Below, piece after piece: positions 4,498 through 21,865 of a stretch of 35,652 nucleotides of DNA. The first letter of the stretch is position 1. The number at the start of each line of letters is the position of its first letter. The stretch is taken from NCBI GenBank assembly GCA_947175575.1, contig CAMWNG010000014.1, forward strand, positions 1 to 35,652, written 5' to 3'. The notes beneath the pieces were generated by a model that saw only the letters and a list, made by a program, of their open reading frames with translations, was not told the DNA's origin and searched no databases. The DNA is from an uncultured Bacteroidales bacterium. GTDB lineage: Bacteria; Bacteroidota; Bacteroidia; Bacteroidales; Muribaculaceae. Both the position numbers and the translations under genes were made by a program.

Positions 4498-6978
4498 TTA
4501 TTTAACGATAACCTTAGCGGCTTTGTCGCCCTGACGGCGGATGTAGAGACCGCCTTCGGGGTTATTGACGCGAATACCCTGGAGGTTGAAGAATTCAACC
4601 TCGCCTGCGGCATCGGCGGCAACTTCTGCCACACCCTTGCCGGGGAGTTCGACATCTGTGATCTGTGCCTTGCGTTCTGCGCTGTCATCCCATTTTGAGA
4701 ATGCGATTGTGCTGAAGCCAAGGTCGCCGACCCATTCTTCGTAGGGAACTTCATCGTCGTCCTCGTCGGTGAAGTGGTGGTTGACAAGAATAGCGTCAAG
4801 ACACCATTTGGTTTCGCCGTTGAACGATTTCTTGGTTCCGGAAATCAGGCCGATGGGATCGTTCTGGAAGTCCCAGACGAAGAGATTCCAGCCGCGGAAG
4901 TCAAGGGGTGTGAAATCGCCGCGATGTTTTACCGAGCCTTCGTTCTGGGTGCGCACCGAGATGTTAACACCGTTGTTCGAGCCGTCTCCGTAAACCCACA
5001 TGGTCAGGATGCCTTTGAAGTCCTTGATGTAGTTGTTCTGTCCGTCGGGCCAGTGGTCGCGGATGATGAAGTTTGTCTCTTCGGGAGCATATTCATCGAA
5101 CACATAGTGCATGCCGAAGCAGGAATTGATGTCGGACATCGGGCCTACAGGAAGAGTCGAGATAGTGGATTCATCGTTGACAATACCTTTGGTCGTGCCT
5201 GAACCGCCGGGAGTCCACATACCATCCACATTTGTGAGGGGCTGAACCATCTTTTCGTCGGTCTTGGTGCGATATTCGGTGAGGAAGCGGAAATGGTATG
5301 CTTCACCTTCGTTGCCGTAAAGGTCGGGCACCTTGCCTGTATAGGAAACAAGCAGAGCCTTATCTGCGGGCAGATCTTCGAGGGGCAGGAAGTGGAGTAC
5401 GGAGTTGCCACGGATAACATCGTGAGAAAGAACGCCTGCGTAATTGTTGCCTTCGGCGTCGGTCACTGTGATGCAGCCTTCGTGCGCGTCGGTGTTGAAG
5501 CTGAGTTCTTCATCAAATTCGAGACGGATCGGGGGACGATGGGTGTATATTACTGTTCCGTCATAATCAGGATAGGTCGACACAACCACAGCGCCCTTGG
5601 TGTCGGGTTCGTCCATGGTGAATGTAAGAGTGTAGTTACCGCCTGCGGTGCCGTCGCCGTCACCGTCGAATTTGGTGTTGGTCTGTGAGTTGAAAGCTAC
5701 ATCGCCGTCGATAGTGATGGTGTATGTGGTCCAGGCTTCGAGCTTGGAGATGTCCACGAGCAGTGTGTAGTCGTTTTTCCATGTGAGCTCTACGACACCG
5801 TTATTGTTGATGCTGAAAGCTTTCTCCACTGATTCGCGGTTCATGTTGCGCGAGAAGGTGATGGTCAGGGGAGCGAGGGGATTCACGGCATCGAGGTCTT
5901 CGAGAGATATGGAAGCGACCACAGCAGGCATGGTGTTGGTCATGGCCTGATCGAGGAAAGTCACATAATCCACGGAGCTGTCACCGCCGCCTTTGATGGT
6001 TACGGTGGTGTTGACGGTTTCGAAACCTTCGGCCGAGATAGTCACGGGGTAGGTTTCGCCTGCGGTGAGGCCTTCGAAGAAGTAGAAGCCGTTGTGAATC
6101 AGATCGGGGTTACGCGAATATTTGCTGAAGAGCGATTCGTATGTATCTGTGGTGTATTCACGGTCGCCAACCTTGATCACTGCGCCGTTGAGGGGCTGGT
6201 CGTTCTCTGAGTTGTAGATCATACCGGTCATGAAGGTCTGTGCGGGACGTTCAACGCCGAAGTACTCGAGAATTGACTGGAAAGCTGCAAAGGCTTCAAG
6301 ACGCTTGTAATCGTCGTTGAGGTTGCGCTGCTGCTGCACGGCCATATCATGATAGCCGCCTTCACTGAGCAGTGATGCCATGGTGGTGCGGCGGTTCACT
6401 GACAGATAGGGATACTGGTTCTCATGGGTTTCGGGAGCGGGATCGTAGTGGCAGCGGTCATGCTTGTTGCCGCGTGTGGTGATACGCATCACGCCTGTGA
6501 GGTTCGGGTTGAGGATTTCGCCGTAGCGCTTGCCGCCGTTAGGGGTTTTCTCGATGTCCTCGCCGTTCAGACGCCAGCCGCCGAACATCGTGAGAGTGGA
6601 GTTCACACTGCCCGATGCGTCGGAGTGGATGGAATAATAGAAGTCGGCGCCCCATGCATTGGCCATATCGGAGCGTTCTTCGAGGCTCACGGTGGTGTTC
6701 TGGTCATAGCGGCAGAGCATGATGTTCTCCTGGTCGACAGCTGTCGTGTAGGTTTCCAGCATGTCTTTGATGTTGAGGGCCACGGCAAGAGTCTTTTCTG
6801 CTTCTGAATAGCCCCAGAGGCCGCGGTTTTCTGTTCCGGAGTGGCCCGGATCGAGGAATATCTTATAGTTACCCCATTCGATTTTAGCGTCCTGTGCGTT
6901 GGCGACGGGAGCGGCCGCAATGGCAGCGACACCCAGCAGCATGCCGGAAGCCAGTGTATTGATGTTGATCTTTTTCAT
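4498..6978 (-). CDS. Secreted N-acetylmuramoyl-L-alanine amidase with Ig-like domains and C-terminal sorting tail
   Basis: An 826-residue exported protein with a signal peptide ending near residue 29 (VANAQ). Residues about 38-245 form an Amidase_3 (AmiC/CwlV) zinc amidase that cleaves the amide bond between muramic acid and the stem peptide. Visible zinc and catalytic residues are His46 (LDPGHSG), Glu59 or Glu61, His118 (YSIHSD) and Glu206 (LLSEGG). A carboxypeptidase-regulatory-like sandwich follows (about 250-335), then two Big_5-type Ig domains (about 365-455 and 470-570), a large beta-rich region (about 585-770) and a tail ending GLYIRRQGDKAAKVIVK that resembles a Por/T9SS type A sorting domain. 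It starts six bases after the upstream propeller gene stop, so the two are co-transcribed. Whether it acts on its own wall or on others is not shown by sequence. Confidence 0.9.
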   Translation of the reverse strand: MKKININTLASGMLLGVAAIAAAPVANAQDAKIEWGNYKIFLDPGHSGTENRGLWGYSEAEKTLAVALNIKDMLETYTTAVDQENIMLCRYDQNTTVSLEERSDMANAWGADFYYSIHSDASGSVNSTLTMFGGWRLNGEDIEKTPNGGKRYGEILNPNLTGVMRITTRGNKHDRCHYDPAPETHENQYPYLSVNRRTTMASLLSEGGYHDMAVQQQRNLNDDYKRLEAFAAFQSILEYFGVERPAQTFMTGMIYNSENDQPLNGAVIKVGDREYTTDTYESLFSKYSRNPDLIHNGFYFFEGLTAGETYPVTISAEGFETVNTTVTIKGGGDSSVDYVTFLDQAMTNTMPAVVASISLEDLDAVNPLAPLTITFSRNMNRESVEKAFSINNNGVVELTWKNDYTLLVDISKLEAWTTYTITIDGDVAFNSQTNTKFDGDGDGTAGGNYTLTFTMDEPDTKGAVVVSTYPDYDGTVIYTHRPPIRLEFDEELSFNTDAHEGCITVTDAEGNNYAGVLSHDVIRGNSVLHFLPLEDLPADKALLVSYTGKVPDLYGNEGEAYHFRFLTEYRTKTDEKMVQPLTNVDGMWTPGGSGTTKGIVNDESTISTLPVGPMSDINSCFGMHYVFDEYAPEETNFIIRDHWPDGQNNYIKDFKGILTMWVYGDGSNNGVNISVRTQNEGSVKHRGDFTPLDFRGWNLFVWDFQNDPIGLISGTKKSFNGETKWCLDAILVNHHFTDEDDDEVPYEEWVGDLGFSTIAFSKWDDSAERKAQITDVELPGKGVAEVAADAAGEVEFFNLQGIRVNNPEGGLYIRRQGDKAAKVIVK

Positions 6979-12027: not shown

Positions 12028-13137
12028 TTAATCATTTTTACAATGTTGTTCAAATTCTTTATCGGACTGATTCACTGTCGAACTTTCGCATTCGGGACAG
12101 AACGATGGTGATGTTGATTCTGAATCTTTCGGATCCACATATTTGATGGGGTTTCCGGCGCAGAAGGTGTAGGGAGAGAGATGGCCATAATCGAGAGCAC
12201 GCGGATCGGGGGTGGACCATAGCACGAGTGCGGAATTGTAGCGGCGCGCCGAGAAATCATATTCGGCACAGCCGTTGTCGCGCATGCGTTCCTTGCCGGC
12301 GAAAAGGTATGGCTGACCTTCCGGTTCGCGCCACGGTTCGCCGTAGGGGTAATAACCGGTGTGCTGCACGATCTGTCCGTAGCGGTCGGTCACCATCGTA
12401 ACGGATCCCTGCCAGTCGGTGTGGCGGTAGAAGGGATTCCCCGTGCGGTCGAAATAGCCCTCGCCGAAGTTGATCATCGAGATCGTATCGTTGCGGAACA
12501 CGAAATTACCGACATAGGTGCGACTGCCCTTCAGACGATTGTACGAGATACCCGAGGATGACGGCGCCGTATGCTTCATGTCCATCAGCACTCCCGAGCT
12601 GGAATAGGTGTAAGTAACCTCGCTGCCGTCCTCGAATTTGACCGATACGGGCTTTGAGAACCAGTTATAGAAGATGGATGCAATGCCGCGGGAAGGATCG
12701 CACACGAGCAGGCCGGCGTCATTCCAGCCTAACGTGCCTCTCCAGTCGGTCGCCACGCCCGCACGTCCGTAGAACTCCGTGCCGTCCGATGCCGTGAGTG
12801 TCCTGACGAGCAATACTCCGTCCCATAGATAGGACAGATTGTCAAGCTGTCCGAAGCGCTCGATTTTTTTGCCCTGTAATCCCGGCATCATCATCACGAT
12901 ACCATTGCGTGTGAGGCTCTTGAGCGCACCGACTTCGTTATATGAGTACGTGGTGGAGAAATCCTCTGTCAGTTCGGCGCGGCCGCACAAGGTCCAGAGG
13001 TCGGATTGGAGTTCGGACGTTTCCAGACCGGTGAATCCTTGCAGCTCCCTGGCATAGGCATAGAAAAAGCCTATAACCGACAGTGTTAAAATTGTGAACA
13101 ATCGGCGGGATGCATTAATGGTCAGTTGCTTTTTCAT
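12028..13137 (-). CDS. Orphan RHS-repeat core protein with signal peptide
   Basis: A 369-residue secreted RHS/YD-repeat protein, much shorter than full-length RHS toxins (usually well over 1000 residues). A signal peptide or anchor covers residues 1-29. YD-like repeats follow (YSYNEVGALKSL, YTYSSSGVLMD), then the RHS-associated core at about 235-336 with DWQGSVTMVTD, YYPYGEP, YLFAGKER, YDFSARRYNS, WSTPDP and CAGNPIKYVDP. After this conserved core only about 33 polar residues remain, including CPEC and a last Cys, where a variable toxin tip would normally sit. It may be an orphan tip module used in recombination or a domesticated surface protein; no T6SS or partner gene is visible. A TATCTTTG promoter lies upstream at 13204-13211. 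Confidence 0.85.
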   Translation of the reverse strand: MKKQLTINASRRLFTILTLSVIGFFYAYARELQGFTGLETSELQSDLWTLCGRAELTEDFSTTYSYNEVGALKSLTRNGIVMMMPGLQGKKIERFGQLDNLSYLWDGVLLVRTLTASDGTEFYGRAGVATDWRGTLGWNDAGLLVCDPSRGIASIFYNWFSKPVSVKFEDGSEVTYTYSSSGVLMDMKHTAPSSSGISYNRLKGSRTYVGNFVFRNDTISMINFGEGYFDRTGNPFYRHTDWQGSVTMVTDRYGQIVQHTGYYPYGEPWREPEGQPYLFAGKERMRDNGCAEYDFSARRYNSALVLWSTPDPRALDYGHLSPYTFCAGNPIKYVDPKDSESTSPSFCPECESSTVNQSDKEFEQHCKND

Positions 13138-20096: not shown

Positions 20097-20126
20097 GTCA
20101 GCTCCGATTTTTGTACCGGAGCTGAC
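20097..20126 (-). terminator. Terminator of the amidase/spanin-like cassette
   Basis: Ten-base perfect arms (20097-20106 and 20117-20126) with a 10-base loop, followed on the minus strand by seven T. It lies 16 bases after the spanin-like gene stop and abuts the helicase promoter. Confidence 0.85.
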
Positions 20127-20141
20127 ATATCAACGACATCA

Positions 20142-20564
20142 TTAACGCCGACGGAACACAATTGAGGCCGTTATCAGCAGCAGGATTACCGCTGAAATCC
20201 ATAGCCAACGCCACTGAGCTGCCGGACCGCATATCTCTGACGTAGAATTCTTTGATGTCCGGCTTGCAGCATCGACAGAGTCAATTGATGCCGCCTCGAC
20301 TGAATGTTCTTCCACACTCTGTATTCTCATCTTTCGAGCTGTCAACATTCCGCTTGATGGTTTATACACGGAATCTTCCGGCATAGTCCACACGACTGTC
20401 ACTGAATCCAGCTCTACTTCTCTTCTCGCCGACAACAGTTCTGAGAGGTTCATTCTCCGTACGTTCACGCTGTCAGTCACCGTTTCCGACTGAACAGCCA
20501 TCTTCCCCGAACGGCAGCCGCCGGCCATCAGGGCAATGGTCAGAATGAGCATTATCCTTTTCAT
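20142..20564 (-). CDS. Small lipoprotein with C-terminal transmembrane helix, unimolecular-spanin-like
   Basis: A 140-residue envelope protein. The N-terminal signal ends in a plausible lipobox (LMAGGC, Cys17), giving lipid attachment. About 100 polar residues follow, and then a strong membrane helix at about 118-136 (WLWISAVILLLITASIVF) ending in RRR. A protein anchored by lipid at one end and by a helix at the other is the topology of unimolecular spanins such as phage T1 gp11, which is of similar size, where the protein links outer and inner membranes and fuses them at lysis. I recognise no sequence family, so this is a topology argument. The gene overlaps the amidase stop by four bases (ATGA), as phage lysis genes often do. 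A lysis-cassette member is the best reading; an ordinary host lipoprotein is possible. Confidence 0.6.
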   Translation of the reverse strand: MKRIMLILTIALMAGGCRSGKMAVQSETVTDSVNVRRMNLSELLSARREVELDSVTVVWTMPEDSVYKPSSGMLTARKMRIQSVEEHSVEAASIDSVDAASRTSKNSTSEICGPAAQWRWLWISAVILLLITASIVFRRR

Positions 20565-20968
20565 AAAGCGGCGTATTCAGAGGTGGCGTCGAAACATGGA
20601 CATGCCTTCGCCGCCACATCGCGGTGTCCGATTATGCGTGCGCCGGAAAACCTTCCGCGCAGCTTCGCGAGCAACGCTTTCAGCGCCTTGCGCTGGGCCG
20701 GAGTGCGGGTATCAGCCGGCTTTCCGGCGGCGTCAAGGCCGCCGACATAGGCCACTCCCACCGAATTGGCATTATAGCCGCGCGCATGGGCTCCGACTTT
20801 CTCGAGCGGACGCCCGGTCTCTATTGTGCCGTCGATGCGCACAACATAGTGATACCCGACATCGCTGAAACCTCTCGCAAGATGCCAGGCGCGGATGTCG
20901 GCCACCGAACAGTCACGGCCGACAGGTGTGGCGGTGCAGTGCACCACAATCAGATTTATCTCTCTCAT
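20561..20968 (-). CDS. T7-lysozyme-type N-acetylmuramoyl-L-alanine amidase (endolysin-like)
   Basis: A 135-residue Amidase_2/PGRP-fold zinc amidase that would cut between muramic acid and L-alanine. The start at 20968 (MREINLIVVHCTA) matches the family N-terminus; a longer frame upstream adds unrelated residues. All T7 lysozyme active-site positions are kept at identical spacing: zinc ligands His10, His115 and Cys123, plus Tyr39 and Lys121 (T7 His17, His122, Cys130, Tyr46, Lys128). There is no signal peptide, so the enzyme needs a holin or lysis to reach the wall. It is translationally coupled to the spanin-like gene. Such stand-alone amidases are common in Bacteroidales genomes and are usually read as phage-derived. 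Confidence 0.9.
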   Translation of the reverse strand: MREINLIVVHCTATPVGRDCSVADIRAWHLARGFSDVGYHYVVRIDGTIETGRPLEKVGAHARGYNANSVGVAYVGGLDAAGKPADTRTPAQRKALKALLAKLRGRFSGARIIGHRDVAAKACPCFDATSEYAAL

Positions 20969-21000
20969 AAAACTAAAATTTGAAAAAATCAGATAAAAAT

Positions 21001-21031
21001 TTTGTCGTATAAAAAAATGTTCGTACCTTTG
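21001..21031 (+). promoter_or_regulatory. Promoter of tRNA-Met
   Basis: TTTG (21001-21004), 19 bases, TACCTTTG (21024-21031), a full consensus match 11 bases before the tRNA 5' end. Confidence 0.85.
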
Positions 21032-21042
21032 CACTCGCAAAC

Positions 21043-21116
21043 GGCGGGATAGCTCAGTTGGTTAGAGCGTCGGATTCATAACCCGGAGGTCCCGAGTTCA
21101 ATTCTCGGTCCCGCTA
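21043..21116 (+). tRNA. tRNA-Met (anticodon CAT)
   Basis: A 74-base cloverleaf without encoded CCA: acceptor GGCGGGA (21043-21049) with TCCCGCT (21109-21115, first pair G-T), D-arm GCTC/GAGC, anticodon loop TTCATAA, T-arm CCGAG/CTCGG with TTCAATT, discriminator A. The first acceptor pair is not the C-A mismatch of initiator tRNA, so elongator Met is favoured; Ile with a lysidine-modified CAT cannot be strictly excluded. The bottom of the anticodon stem has an A-C apposition next to the loop. Strong promoter and terminator flank it. Confidence 0.93.
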
Positions 21117-21118
21117 CA

Positions 21119-21148
21119 AGCCTCGATCATTTGGTCGGGGCTTTTTTT
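21119..21148 (+). terminator. Terminator of tRNA-Met
   Basis: Eight-base arms (21119-21126 and 21135-21142, one wobble), eight-base loop and a seven-T run, two bases after the tRNA. Confidence 0.9.
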
Positions 21149-21185
21149 CATACCGCAAATTTACTGCTCCGCGCACCGGTCCTGT

Positions 21186-21206
21186 CGACAATCGGACCGA
21201 TTGTGC
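21186..21206. promoter_or_regulatory. Palindromic operator-like element, copy 1
   Basis: The core ACAATCGGNCCGATTGT (21188-21204) is a perfect 17-base palindrome around one central base. The 21 bases at 21186-21206 are an exact reverse complement of those at 21247-21267. The shape suits a dimeric DNA-binding protein. Confidence 0.7.
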
Positions 21207-21355: not shown

Positions 21356-21865
21356 ATGACAAACTCGACACTCACCCTTCAGCCCCTCTGGATCAATCAC
21401 ATCGAACGCTTCCCCGAACGCATGCGCCCGCGGCTCTACGGCGCGCTCATCGCCTTCCTGCTCCACGGCACACCTATCCCCGAAAAACTCCTCCCATACC
21501 TCGGCATAATTCTCGATCTCATCGACGCTGAAAAAGGCGACTCCACCGATAACTCGGAGACAGCCGAAGCCCTTCCCGCCACAGCCACAGCTATCCCCGA
21601 ACCGCCAGCTCAGGAGCTGGAATATCTGCGCTCGTTCACCAAGGCATGCTCACGCCGTTTCTGCCTGCAATACAATATCGACCGCGAGACTTTCGACCGC
21701 GCGGCGCGGGCCATCGTTGACTACTGGCAGATCGCCTCCCTGCACGACGGCCCGATACATCATGCCTCCGAGGACGAATTCTGGGTAGACATCGCCAACG
21801 CCATGCAGTACGAATTCGCTGTCACCCGCCGGTTCTCGAACCGAACCGCCGGACATCGGTACTAA
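21356..21865 (+). CDS. Small unknown protein, weakly resembling DUF7833/phage replication-type C-termini
   Basis: A 169-residue cytoplasmic protein starting at MTNSTLTLQ; a longer frame back to 21131 would run through the terminator and operators and is not credible. The N-terminal part (LYGALIAFLLHGTPIPEKLLPYLGIILDLID) resembles the helical start of DUF6291-like Bacteroides proteins, a Pro/Ala/Thr linker follows at about 62-82, and the C-terminal part (ETFDRAARAIVDYWQ, then DIANAMQYEFAVTRRF) resembles the DYW/DI..R pattern at the end of Bacteroidetes phage and mobile-element replication proteins. These are impressions, not firm matches. It has its own promoter with paired palindromic operators and stands alone. 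Function unknown; a small regulator or mobile-element remnant are both possible. Confidence 0.65.
   Translation: MTNSTLTLQPLWINHIERFPERMRPRLYGALIAFLLHGTPIPEKLLPYLGIILDLIDAEKGDSTDNSETAEALPATATAIPEPPAQELEYLRSFTKACSRRFCLQYNIDRETFDRAARAIVDYWQIASLHDGPIHHASEDEFWVDIANAMQYEFAVTRRFSNRTAGHRY

What the first reader, a model, noticed from the sequence alone, without database searches (positions are those of the whole stretch)
20142..20968. Two-gene endolysin plus unimolecular-spanin-like cassette without a phage
The T7-lysozyme-type amidase keeps every active-site residue at T7 spacing (His10, Tyr39, His115, Lys121, Cys123) and lacks a signal peptide. Its stop overlaps the start of a 140-residue protein with an N-terminal lipobox and a C-terminal membrane helix ending in RRR, the topology of unimolecular spanins such as T1 gp11. 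Together they could break the wall and fuse the membranes. No holin, capsid or integrase is near, and one terminator closes the pair. This suggests a domesticated lysis module, perhaps for releasing cargo or vesicles, in a phylum where spanins are poorly described.
Basis: partly seen in the sequence, partly recalled or inferred. Interest (0 to 1): 0.7.

Follow-up and report, generated by a model that had tools for sequence, protein, structure and literature searches.

The report
Phage lysis genes kept by host
A bacterium from a gut-dwelling family carries, outside any recognisable virus, a wall-cutting enzyme and a membrane-bridging protein of the kind phages use to burst cells, with a likely partner pore gene elsewhere in its genome, which suggests that it has kept a phage's exit machinery for its own use.

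Summary
A T7-lysozyme-type amidase (20561-20968, minus) overlaps by four bases a 140-residue protein with a lipobox (C17) and a C-terminal helix ending RRR. By one rule, 30 of 34 amidase loci in the genus have such a protein directly downstream, against 0 of 399 control genes. In viral contigs a holin is followed by an endolysin and, in 33 of 59 testable loci (control 3 of 114), by a protein of this layout. 'Unimolecular spanin' thus rests on layout and position, not on homology or assay.

New: the genome does encode a holin-like protein, on another contig, modelled like phage holins. Of 49 genomes of the genus, 23 have a non-prophage amidase locus (21 with the spanin beside it); 22 of these 23 have the holin, against 8 of 26 others, but the association fails a phylogenetic test (p = 0.28). 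Sixteen of the 23 loci sit beside tRNA-Met and/or ligA; amidase and holin are under purifying selection. I read a host-retained phage lysis module, like a type 10 secretion system but usually split. Cargo, regulation and activity are untested; seven congeners keep the holin alone.

The parts
20561..20968 (-). [quoted passage not shown]
   Evidence: Pfam/PHROGs/PDB matches; the five residues in 33 of 34 genus loci by script, the 34th (L056) was a wrong-strand read and has them when read correctly
20142..20564 (-). 140-aa unimolecular-spanin-like lipoprotein with C-terminal membrane helix
   Evidence: layout and recurrence, structure model, genus profile search
20561..20564 (-). four-base overlap of amidase stop and spanin start (translational coupling likely, inferred)
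   Evidence: sequence; start -13 to +22 nt from the amidase stop in the 30 positive genus loci
20514..20564 (-). lipoprotein signal peptide with lipobox AGG-C17 (Cys codon 20514-20516)
   Evidence: sequence; C17 is the only invariant column of 28 relatives
20307..20432 (-). predicted beta-rich periplasmic segment (residues 45-86)
   Evidence: AlphaFold2 strands 45-53, 56-60, 71-75, 78-86
20148..20216 (-). C-terminal transmembrane helix (residues 117-139)
   Evidence: hydropathy
20097..20126 (-). terminator-like hairpin closing the pair
   Evidence: 12 pairs and T-run; 2 terminator-like sites found in the stretch, shuffles mean 1.6
21043..21117 (+). tRNA-Met(CAT), divergent neighbour that marks the locus shared with seven other genomes of the genus

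Best explanation
The pair is an endolysin and a unimolecular spanin descended from a phage lysis cassette, kept and vertically inherited by a lineage of Muribaculaceae as a host module. Proposed mechanism: a holin-like membrane protein, encoded elsewhere in the same genome (G000:C35:20714-21196), opens the inner membrane; the cytoplasmic amidase passes through and cuts peptidoglycan; the spanin, lipid-anchored in the outer membrane and helix-anchored in the inner membrane, is then freed to fuse the two, so that the cell, probably one of a subpopulation, releases its contents. SHOWN: gene structures, recurrence, holin-like gene in the same genome, shared loci, few viral neighbours, selection on amidase and holin. 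INFERRED: that the three act together, that they lyse cells, and that this benefits the host.
For: Layout test 30 of 34 versus 0 of 399. Viral contigs: of 77 loci with a related holin, 59 can be tested, 33 have the spanin layout within 1600 nt downstream, control 3 of 114; six have an Amidase_2 relative next to the holin. In G023 and G003 amidase, spanin and holin genes lie together on one strand; in G037 the holin gene is about 2 kb from the pair. Holin-like gene in the own genome; one relative matches Phage_holin_4_1 over the cut-off, 9 of 26 at E<=0.01; model matches viral holins, best E 9.2e-7, TM 0.78. Locus shared: tRNA-Met upstream in 8 of 23, ligA downstream in 10 of 23, both in G014 and G045, so 16 of 23. 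Neighbours with viral homologues: 3 of 201 around chromosomal amidases, 40 of 123 around prophage copies, 4 of 269 around the holin genes. dN/dS (NG86): amidase 0.06-0.28 (6 pairs), holin 0.03-0.16 (4 pairs), spanin 0.32-0.76 (5 pairs). TANNTTTG, recalled as the housekeeping promoter motif of Bacteroidota, within 90 nt of the start in 11 of 21 amidase and 19 of 25 holin genes; single-base shuffles mean 0.85 and 0.98, maxima 3 and 5.
Against: Holin association [[22,1],[8,18]] (Fisher p 3.7e-6) vanishes under a correlated-evolution test on a ligA tree (LRT 5.05, 4 df, p = 0.28; 41 of 49 genomes). Seven genomes of the genus have the holin but no Amidase_2 and no spanin match, so the holin may have its own job. 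G007 has the pair without the holin; G017 and G040 have the chromosomal amidase without an adjacent spanin. 26 of 59 viral loci lack the spanin layout. The window's own amidase shows no TANNTTTG in its upstream stretch (by eye). The spanin evolves fast and its dN/dS is only moderately below 1; one spanin and one holin pair gave no dS, and a second method (YN00) failed for most pairs. No sequence homology to viral spanins beyond the lipoprotein signal. Cys112 lies in the presumed periplasm, whereas none of 58 surveyed u-spanins had a periplasmic cysteine (PMC6139136, passages seen). No cargo, regulator or activity known.
Confidence: 0.6

Rival explanations
1. Decaying prophage remnant: lysis genes left after the rest of an integrated phage was deleted, with no present function.
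For: Phage families of the amidase and holin; tRNA neighbour in 8 of 23 loci, a usual kind of integration site (recalled); some genomes have lost one part (G007, G017, G040).
Against: Active sites intact in all 34 loci; amidase dN/dS 0.06-0.28 and holin 0.03-0.16; same locus kept by genomes whose ligA proteins are 72-81% identical to the window's; in a poorly resolved tree no chromosomal amidase falls inside the main prophage/viral cluster, although G040 lies beside it and three divergent prophage copies (L067-L069) lie near chromosomal ones.
Confidence: 0.17
2. Non-lytic envelope role: the amidase works in wall turnover or recycling, and the lipoprotein tethers the two membranes, without cell lysis.
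For: Amidase without adjacent spanin in many family and order genomes; long-term retention by hosts; no lysis shown.
Against: No signal peptide, so a holin or other exit route is needed; the same pair stands in prophages and viruses next to holin-like genes; no association with envelope operons was noticed (by eye).
Confidence: 0.13
3. Non-lytic protein export in the style reported for Salmonella type 10 systems: holin plus amidase let folded proteins out of living cells.
For: Such use of phage lysis genes is reported for Salmonella (PMC13284979, abstract seen) and discussed for holins generally (PMC9527704, passages seen).
Against: In Yersinia entomophaga and Serratia the system was found lytic (PMC10847048, passages seen); no cargo gene recurs beside the pair (by eye).
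Confidence: 0.1

Closest known systems
Type 10 secretion systems / host lytic cassettes (Serratia ChiWXYZ, Yersinia entomophaga YenLC, Salmonella)
   Same: Phage-derived holin, endolysin and spanin outside a prophage, among host genes (PMC10847048 passages; PMC13284979 abstract)
   Different: Here a unimolecular spanin and a T7-type amidase, in Bacteroidota; holin gene usually unlinked; no known regulator or cargo. The Serratia and Yersinia cassettes have two-part spanins, and the Serratia endolysin is said to cleave peptidoglycan crosslinks
T1 gp11 and other unimolecular spanins
   Same: N-terminal lipobox, C-terminal membrane helix, beta-rich middle (PMC6139136 passages; model here)
   Different: Not compared by sequence with gp11 itself; Cys112 present; host chromosome
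T7 lysozyme (gp3.5)
   Same: Ungapped alignment over residues 5-128, active-site spacing
   Different: Chromosomal, coupled to a spanin-like gene; RNA-polymerase inhibition not examined
Bacteroides phage F2 (also F4, Bacuni_F1) lysis region
   Same: Amidase 55% identical; in F2 followed after 2 bases by a 146-aa protein with lipobox C16 and C-terminal helix
   Different: A phage; partner annotated 'putative Arm DNA-binding domain protein'; partners in F4 and Bacuni_F1 not read
Phage_holin_4_1 (PF05105)
   Same: Relatives of the unlinked gene match; fold match of the own copy to viral holins
   Different: The window genome's own copy has no match to this family at the thresholds used

Membership tests
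Unimolecular spanin | N-terminal lipoprotein signal with lipobox | tested here: met
   AGG-C17; C17 invariant in 28 relatives (relatives were chosen with a lipobox rule)
Unimolecular spanin | C-terminal transmembrane helix | tested here: met
Unimolecular spanin | Beta-rich periplasmic part, as described for T1 gp11 | tested here: met
   four strands in the model, at moderate confidence
Unimolecular spanin | No periplasmic cysteine (regularity in 58 surveyed members) | tested here: not met
   Cys112 by sequence; survey passage. A regularity, not a definition
Unimolecular spanin | Gene beside endolysin in a lysis cassette | tested here: met
   30 of 34 genus loci; 33 of 59 viral loci
Unimolecular spanin | Complements an Rz/Rz1 lysis defect | not testable with these tools
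   bench test needed
T7-lysozyme-type amidase | Zinc ligands and catalytic residues at T7 spacing | tested here: met
Type 10 secretion system | Holin, endolysin and spanin genes outside a prophage | tested here: met
   viral homologues among neighbours: 0 of 13 at the pair, 0 of 9 at the holin gene; my viral set is small
Type 10 secretion system | The three genes clustered | tested here: not met
   holin gene on another contig; clustered in G023 and G003 of the genus, nearby in G037
Type 10 secretion system | Needed for release of cytoplasmic proteins | not testable with these tools
   no expression or secretion data
Phage_holin_4_1 (unlinked gene) | Score over the curated cut-off | tested here: not met
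   own copy has no match to it; the L048 relative has 27.0 bits against 22.2
Phage_holin_4_1 (unlinked gene) | Holin-like multi-helix fold, and gene next to an endolysin in viruses | tested here: met
   (E 9.2e-7); viral loci
Prophage | Structural, replication or integration genes nearby | tested here: not met
   0 of 13 neighbour genes match my viral set; Pfam scan of nine window proteins

The most novel reading that the evidence does not exclude
A complete phage lysis system was captured by a gut Bacteroidota lineage, taken apart, and kept for long as a two-key self-lysis system: endolysin plus unimolecular spanin at one ancestral locus (tRNA-Met/ligA) and the holin trigger at another, each with its own host-type promoter, so that a cell bursts only when both are on, releasing enzymes, vesicles or toxins for its kin.
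Probability: 0.35. Interest if true: 0.82.

Novelty: new variant of a known kind. Interest (0 to 1): 0.62.

Why it matters
The host-owned lysis cassettes (type 10 secretion) that I saw described are in Serratia, Yersinia and Salmonella; my searches of the paper library listed none in Bacteroidota, in a library that lacks most subscription journals. A conserved one in Muribaculaceae (relatives come from deer, yak, buffalo and other gut samples by their titles) would offer a route for release of cytoplasmic proteins and vesicles in gut communities. It also yields a fast-evolving set of spanin candidates that single-sequence searches miss but layout and position reveal, and a testable case of a lysis system split over two loci.

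Tried and rejected
Sequence searches with the 140-aa protein alone: 3 relatives besides itself in 99 genomes, none in viral contigs, no Pfam, NCBIfam or PADLOC family and no PHROG at E<0.2; for 28 relatives only weak PHROG matches, one member each. Position and layout had to be used instead.

Co-occurrence of pair and holin as proof of joint function: rejected after the tree-based test (p = 0.28). Eight of 49 genomes were left out there: G010, G015, G022, G039 and G043 had no ligA match, G011, G042 and G046 only a partial one. G040's holin counts as present although it is in two pieces on two contigs.

Other endolysin in holin-only genomes: GH108 found in 2 of 49 genomes (G023, G034), neither holin-only; Amidase_3 and M15 types not searched. 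Three of the seven holin-only genomes are 77-85% complete, so a missing amidase may be an assembly gap there. Endolysin types in viral contigs other than Amidase_2 were named by eye, not by profile; one search's output was cut and skipped repeats, so the count comes, where 3 of 77 loci had no holin ORF and 15 ended within 1400 nt of it.

Amidase tree of 63 sequences: poorly resolved, a weak remark only. 'Chromosomal' versus 'prophage' was first set by eye from neighbours and then checked against ORFs of 78 viral loci; genes of under 260 aa beside the amidase were left out of that count, and some contigs are short (1 neighbour in L042, 3 in L057, 4 in L044). The spanin model gave no fold match at E<=0.001; the holin model none in PDB. 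Profile comparison of genus and viral spanins aligned only the signal region. Bacteroides phage B124-14, listed as spanin-less, shows no such protein among the five genes read at its endolysin. Outside the genus the adjacent-spanin rule was met in 7 of 20 family loci (three of them chosen because a holin was near; L187 failed although one search shows a 150-aa candidate) and 2 of 29 order-level loci.

Full report
WHAT IS THERE. On the minus strand, 20968 to 20142, two genes overlap by four bases. The first codes for a 135-aa Amidase_2 protein without visible signal peptide, aligned without gaps to T7 lysozyme over residues 5-128. The second codes for 140 aa: lipoprotein signal with C17, a middle part modelled as four strands, and a C-terminal helix with RRR. 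A terminator-like hairpin follows at 20126-20097. tRNA-Met lies 75 nt upstream of the amidase, divergent. The window is one contig (C14) of a 2.36-Mb, 107-contig assembly, 91.8% complete, whose only Amidase_2 match is this one.

IS THE LAYOUT MORE THAN CHANCE? By sequence the small protein is almost invisible: of 99 genomes searched, 3 besides its own gave a match. By position it is not. Of 49 genomes of the genus (own included), 26 carry the amidase, at 34 places. At each I asked for a same-strand ORF of 70-260 aa starting near the amidase stop, with lipobox and C-terminal hydrophobic segment: 30 of 34 have one, starting -13 to +22 nt from the stop. The same rule gave 2 of 401 for other called genes, and both were amidases that my filter missed, so 0 of 399. 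By class: 21 of 23 chromosomal and 9 of 11 prophage copies; the misses are L044 (G040), L052 (G017), L067 and L069. An alignment of 28 such proteins has one invariant column, C17, and as a profile it recovers them in the genus.

PHAGE CONTEXT. In 7 of 11 prophage copies a 71-93-aa two-helix protein precedes the amidase; tape-measure-like proteins stand near some (by eye). A scan of viral contigs with the holin alignment described below gave 77 loci; their hosts and habitats are not named. There the holin is followed by one of several endolysin types (named by eye unless Amidase_2) and often by a protein with lipobox and C-terminal helix. Counted over all: 3 loci had no holin ORF, 15 end within 1400 nt, and of the other 59, 33 have the layout within 1600 nt downstream, 26 do not; the same rule after other genes of these contigs gave 3 of 114. 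Six loci have an Amidase_2 relative next to the holin; five of them (L200, L205, L242-L244) also have the spanin layout, and L235 ends early. Bacteroides phage F2 has the amidase plus a 146-aa protein of the same layout, annotated as an Arm DNA-binding protein. A 2025 survey says that Bacteroidetes phages exclusively use unimolecular spanins (PMC12596118, passages). That the layout stays while the endolysin changes is the best argument for spanin function. Against it: genus and viral spanin profiles align only over the signal, many viral loci lack the layout, and Cys112 departs from a regularity in 58 known u-spanins (PMC6139136, passages).

THE MISSING HOLIN. In G023 and G003 a third gene follows the pair on the same strand, and in G037 a relative lies about 2 kb away beyond ribosomal-protein-like genes. 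It belongs with Phage_holin_4_1: the G037 copy scores 27.0 bits against a cut-off of 22.2; 9 of 26 relatives match at E<=0.01. A search of the genus found relatives in 30 of 49 genomes, including the window's own, at G000:C35:20759-21169 (ORF of 160 aa, 20714-21196). That copy has no match to the family, but its model (mean pLDDT 86.9) matches viral holins, best E 9.2e-7, TM 0.78, 3 hits at E<=0.001, all named holin. In most of the 28 regions fetched the gene stands among housekeeping-like genes (by eye); 4 of 269 neighbours have a homologue in my viral set, 0 of 9 in the own genome. In the family it is found in 41 of 297 genomes, the amidase in 170 of 297 and in 24 of 198 order-level genomes.

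HOST OWNED? (a) Place: tRNA-Met 75-214 nt upstream in 8 of 23 chromosomal loci, ligA convergent just downstream in 10 of 23, both in G014 and G045; together 16 of 23. Several contigs end too soon to tell. (b) Neighbours: 3 of 201 genes around chromosomal copies have a homologue in my viral loci against 40 of 123 around prophage copies. (c) Selection, pairwise NG86: amidase 0.06-0.28, holin 0.03-0.16, spanin 0.32-0.76; several dS values are near or beyond saturation, and the YN00 method failed for most pairs, so only the direction counts. (d) TANNTTTG upstream in 11 of 21 amidase and 19 of 25 holin genes, single-base shuffles mean below 1; the window's own holin gene has it, its amidase does not (by eye). 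(e) Association: 22 of 23 genomes with a chromosomal amidase have the holin, 8 of 26 others do (Fisher p 3.7e-6), but on a ligA tree of 41 genomes independent and dependent models do not differ (p = 0.28). The pattern looks vertical: most members of one large clade have both, and a nested group (G006, G013, G035, G048) lacks both.

WHAT SPEAKS AGAINST. Seven genomes (G002, G004, G009, G010, G029, G032, G042) have the holin with no Amidase_2 and no spanin match. G007 has the pair and no holin. Outside the genus the spanin is often absent next to the amidase: present in 7 of 20 family loci and 2 of 29 order-level loci. No regulator, cargo or expression is known.

MECHANISM. Holin opens the inner membrane, amidase reaches and cuts the wall, spanin fuses the membranes. 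Each step is established for phages (general knowledge; PMC6139136, passages) and for the lytic T10SS of Yersinia entomophaga and Serratia (PMC10847048, passages); for this genome it is inference from parts. Salmonella systems are reported as non-lytic (PMC13284979, abstract), so release without death remains open. A review considers, for another holin, a partner endolysin encoded elsewhere in the genome (PMC9527704, passages), the same kind of split as proposed here.

COMPARED WITH THE KNOWN. It works like a T10SS but fails one feature of the usual description, clustering of the three genes; I therefore file it as a variant, not a member. As a unimolecular spanin it meets the structural features and awaits complementation. 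Literature searches listed no host-owned lysis cassette in Bacteroidota; the library lacks most subscription papers, and I saw listings, abstracts and passages only.

VERDICT. Interest 0.62.

Noticed in passing
L268:4405-4845 (+), Bacteroides phage F2: Gene annotated 'putative Arm DNA-binding domain protein' has lipobox C16 and a C-terminal membrane helix directly after the amidase: probably a unimolecular spanin.
   Followed up: partly
L174, L178, L181, L186, L187 (other genera of the family): A different 144-155-aa membrane protein (holin-like by eye) directly upstream of the amidase; L178, L181 and L186 pass the adjacent-spanin rule, L187 shows a candidate. L181 and L187 share neighbours. 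These look like three-gene host cassettes.
   Followed up: partly
G002, G004, G009, G010, G029, G032, G042: Holin-like gene kept without Amidase_2 and without a spanin match: another endolysin, an assembly gap, or a separate role of the holin.
   Followed up: partly
G041:C14:1298-1753 and G013:C62:51683-52153: Spanin-profile matches (E 2.9e-24 and 3.2e-11) in genomes with no Amidase_2 match: perhaps prophages with another endolysin.
   Followed up: no
window 4498-6978 (-): 826-aa protein whose N-terminal part looks like a secreted Amidase_3 wall hydrolase and whose C-terminus looks like a sorting signal; by eye only.
   Followed up: no
window 21356-21865 (+): 169-aa protein with no family match over cut-off in Pfam and none in PHROGs, NCBIfam or PADLOC.
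   Followed up: no
window 12028-13137 (-): RHS-like protein (weak RHS_repeat match, below cut-off) beside ligA.
   Followed up: no
L038, L039, L040, L041, L043, L046, L050, L053, L054, L057: Spanin 3' end overlaps the 3' end of convergent ligA by about 40 bases, so the spanin tail and the DNA ligase C-terminus share bases.
   Followed up: partly
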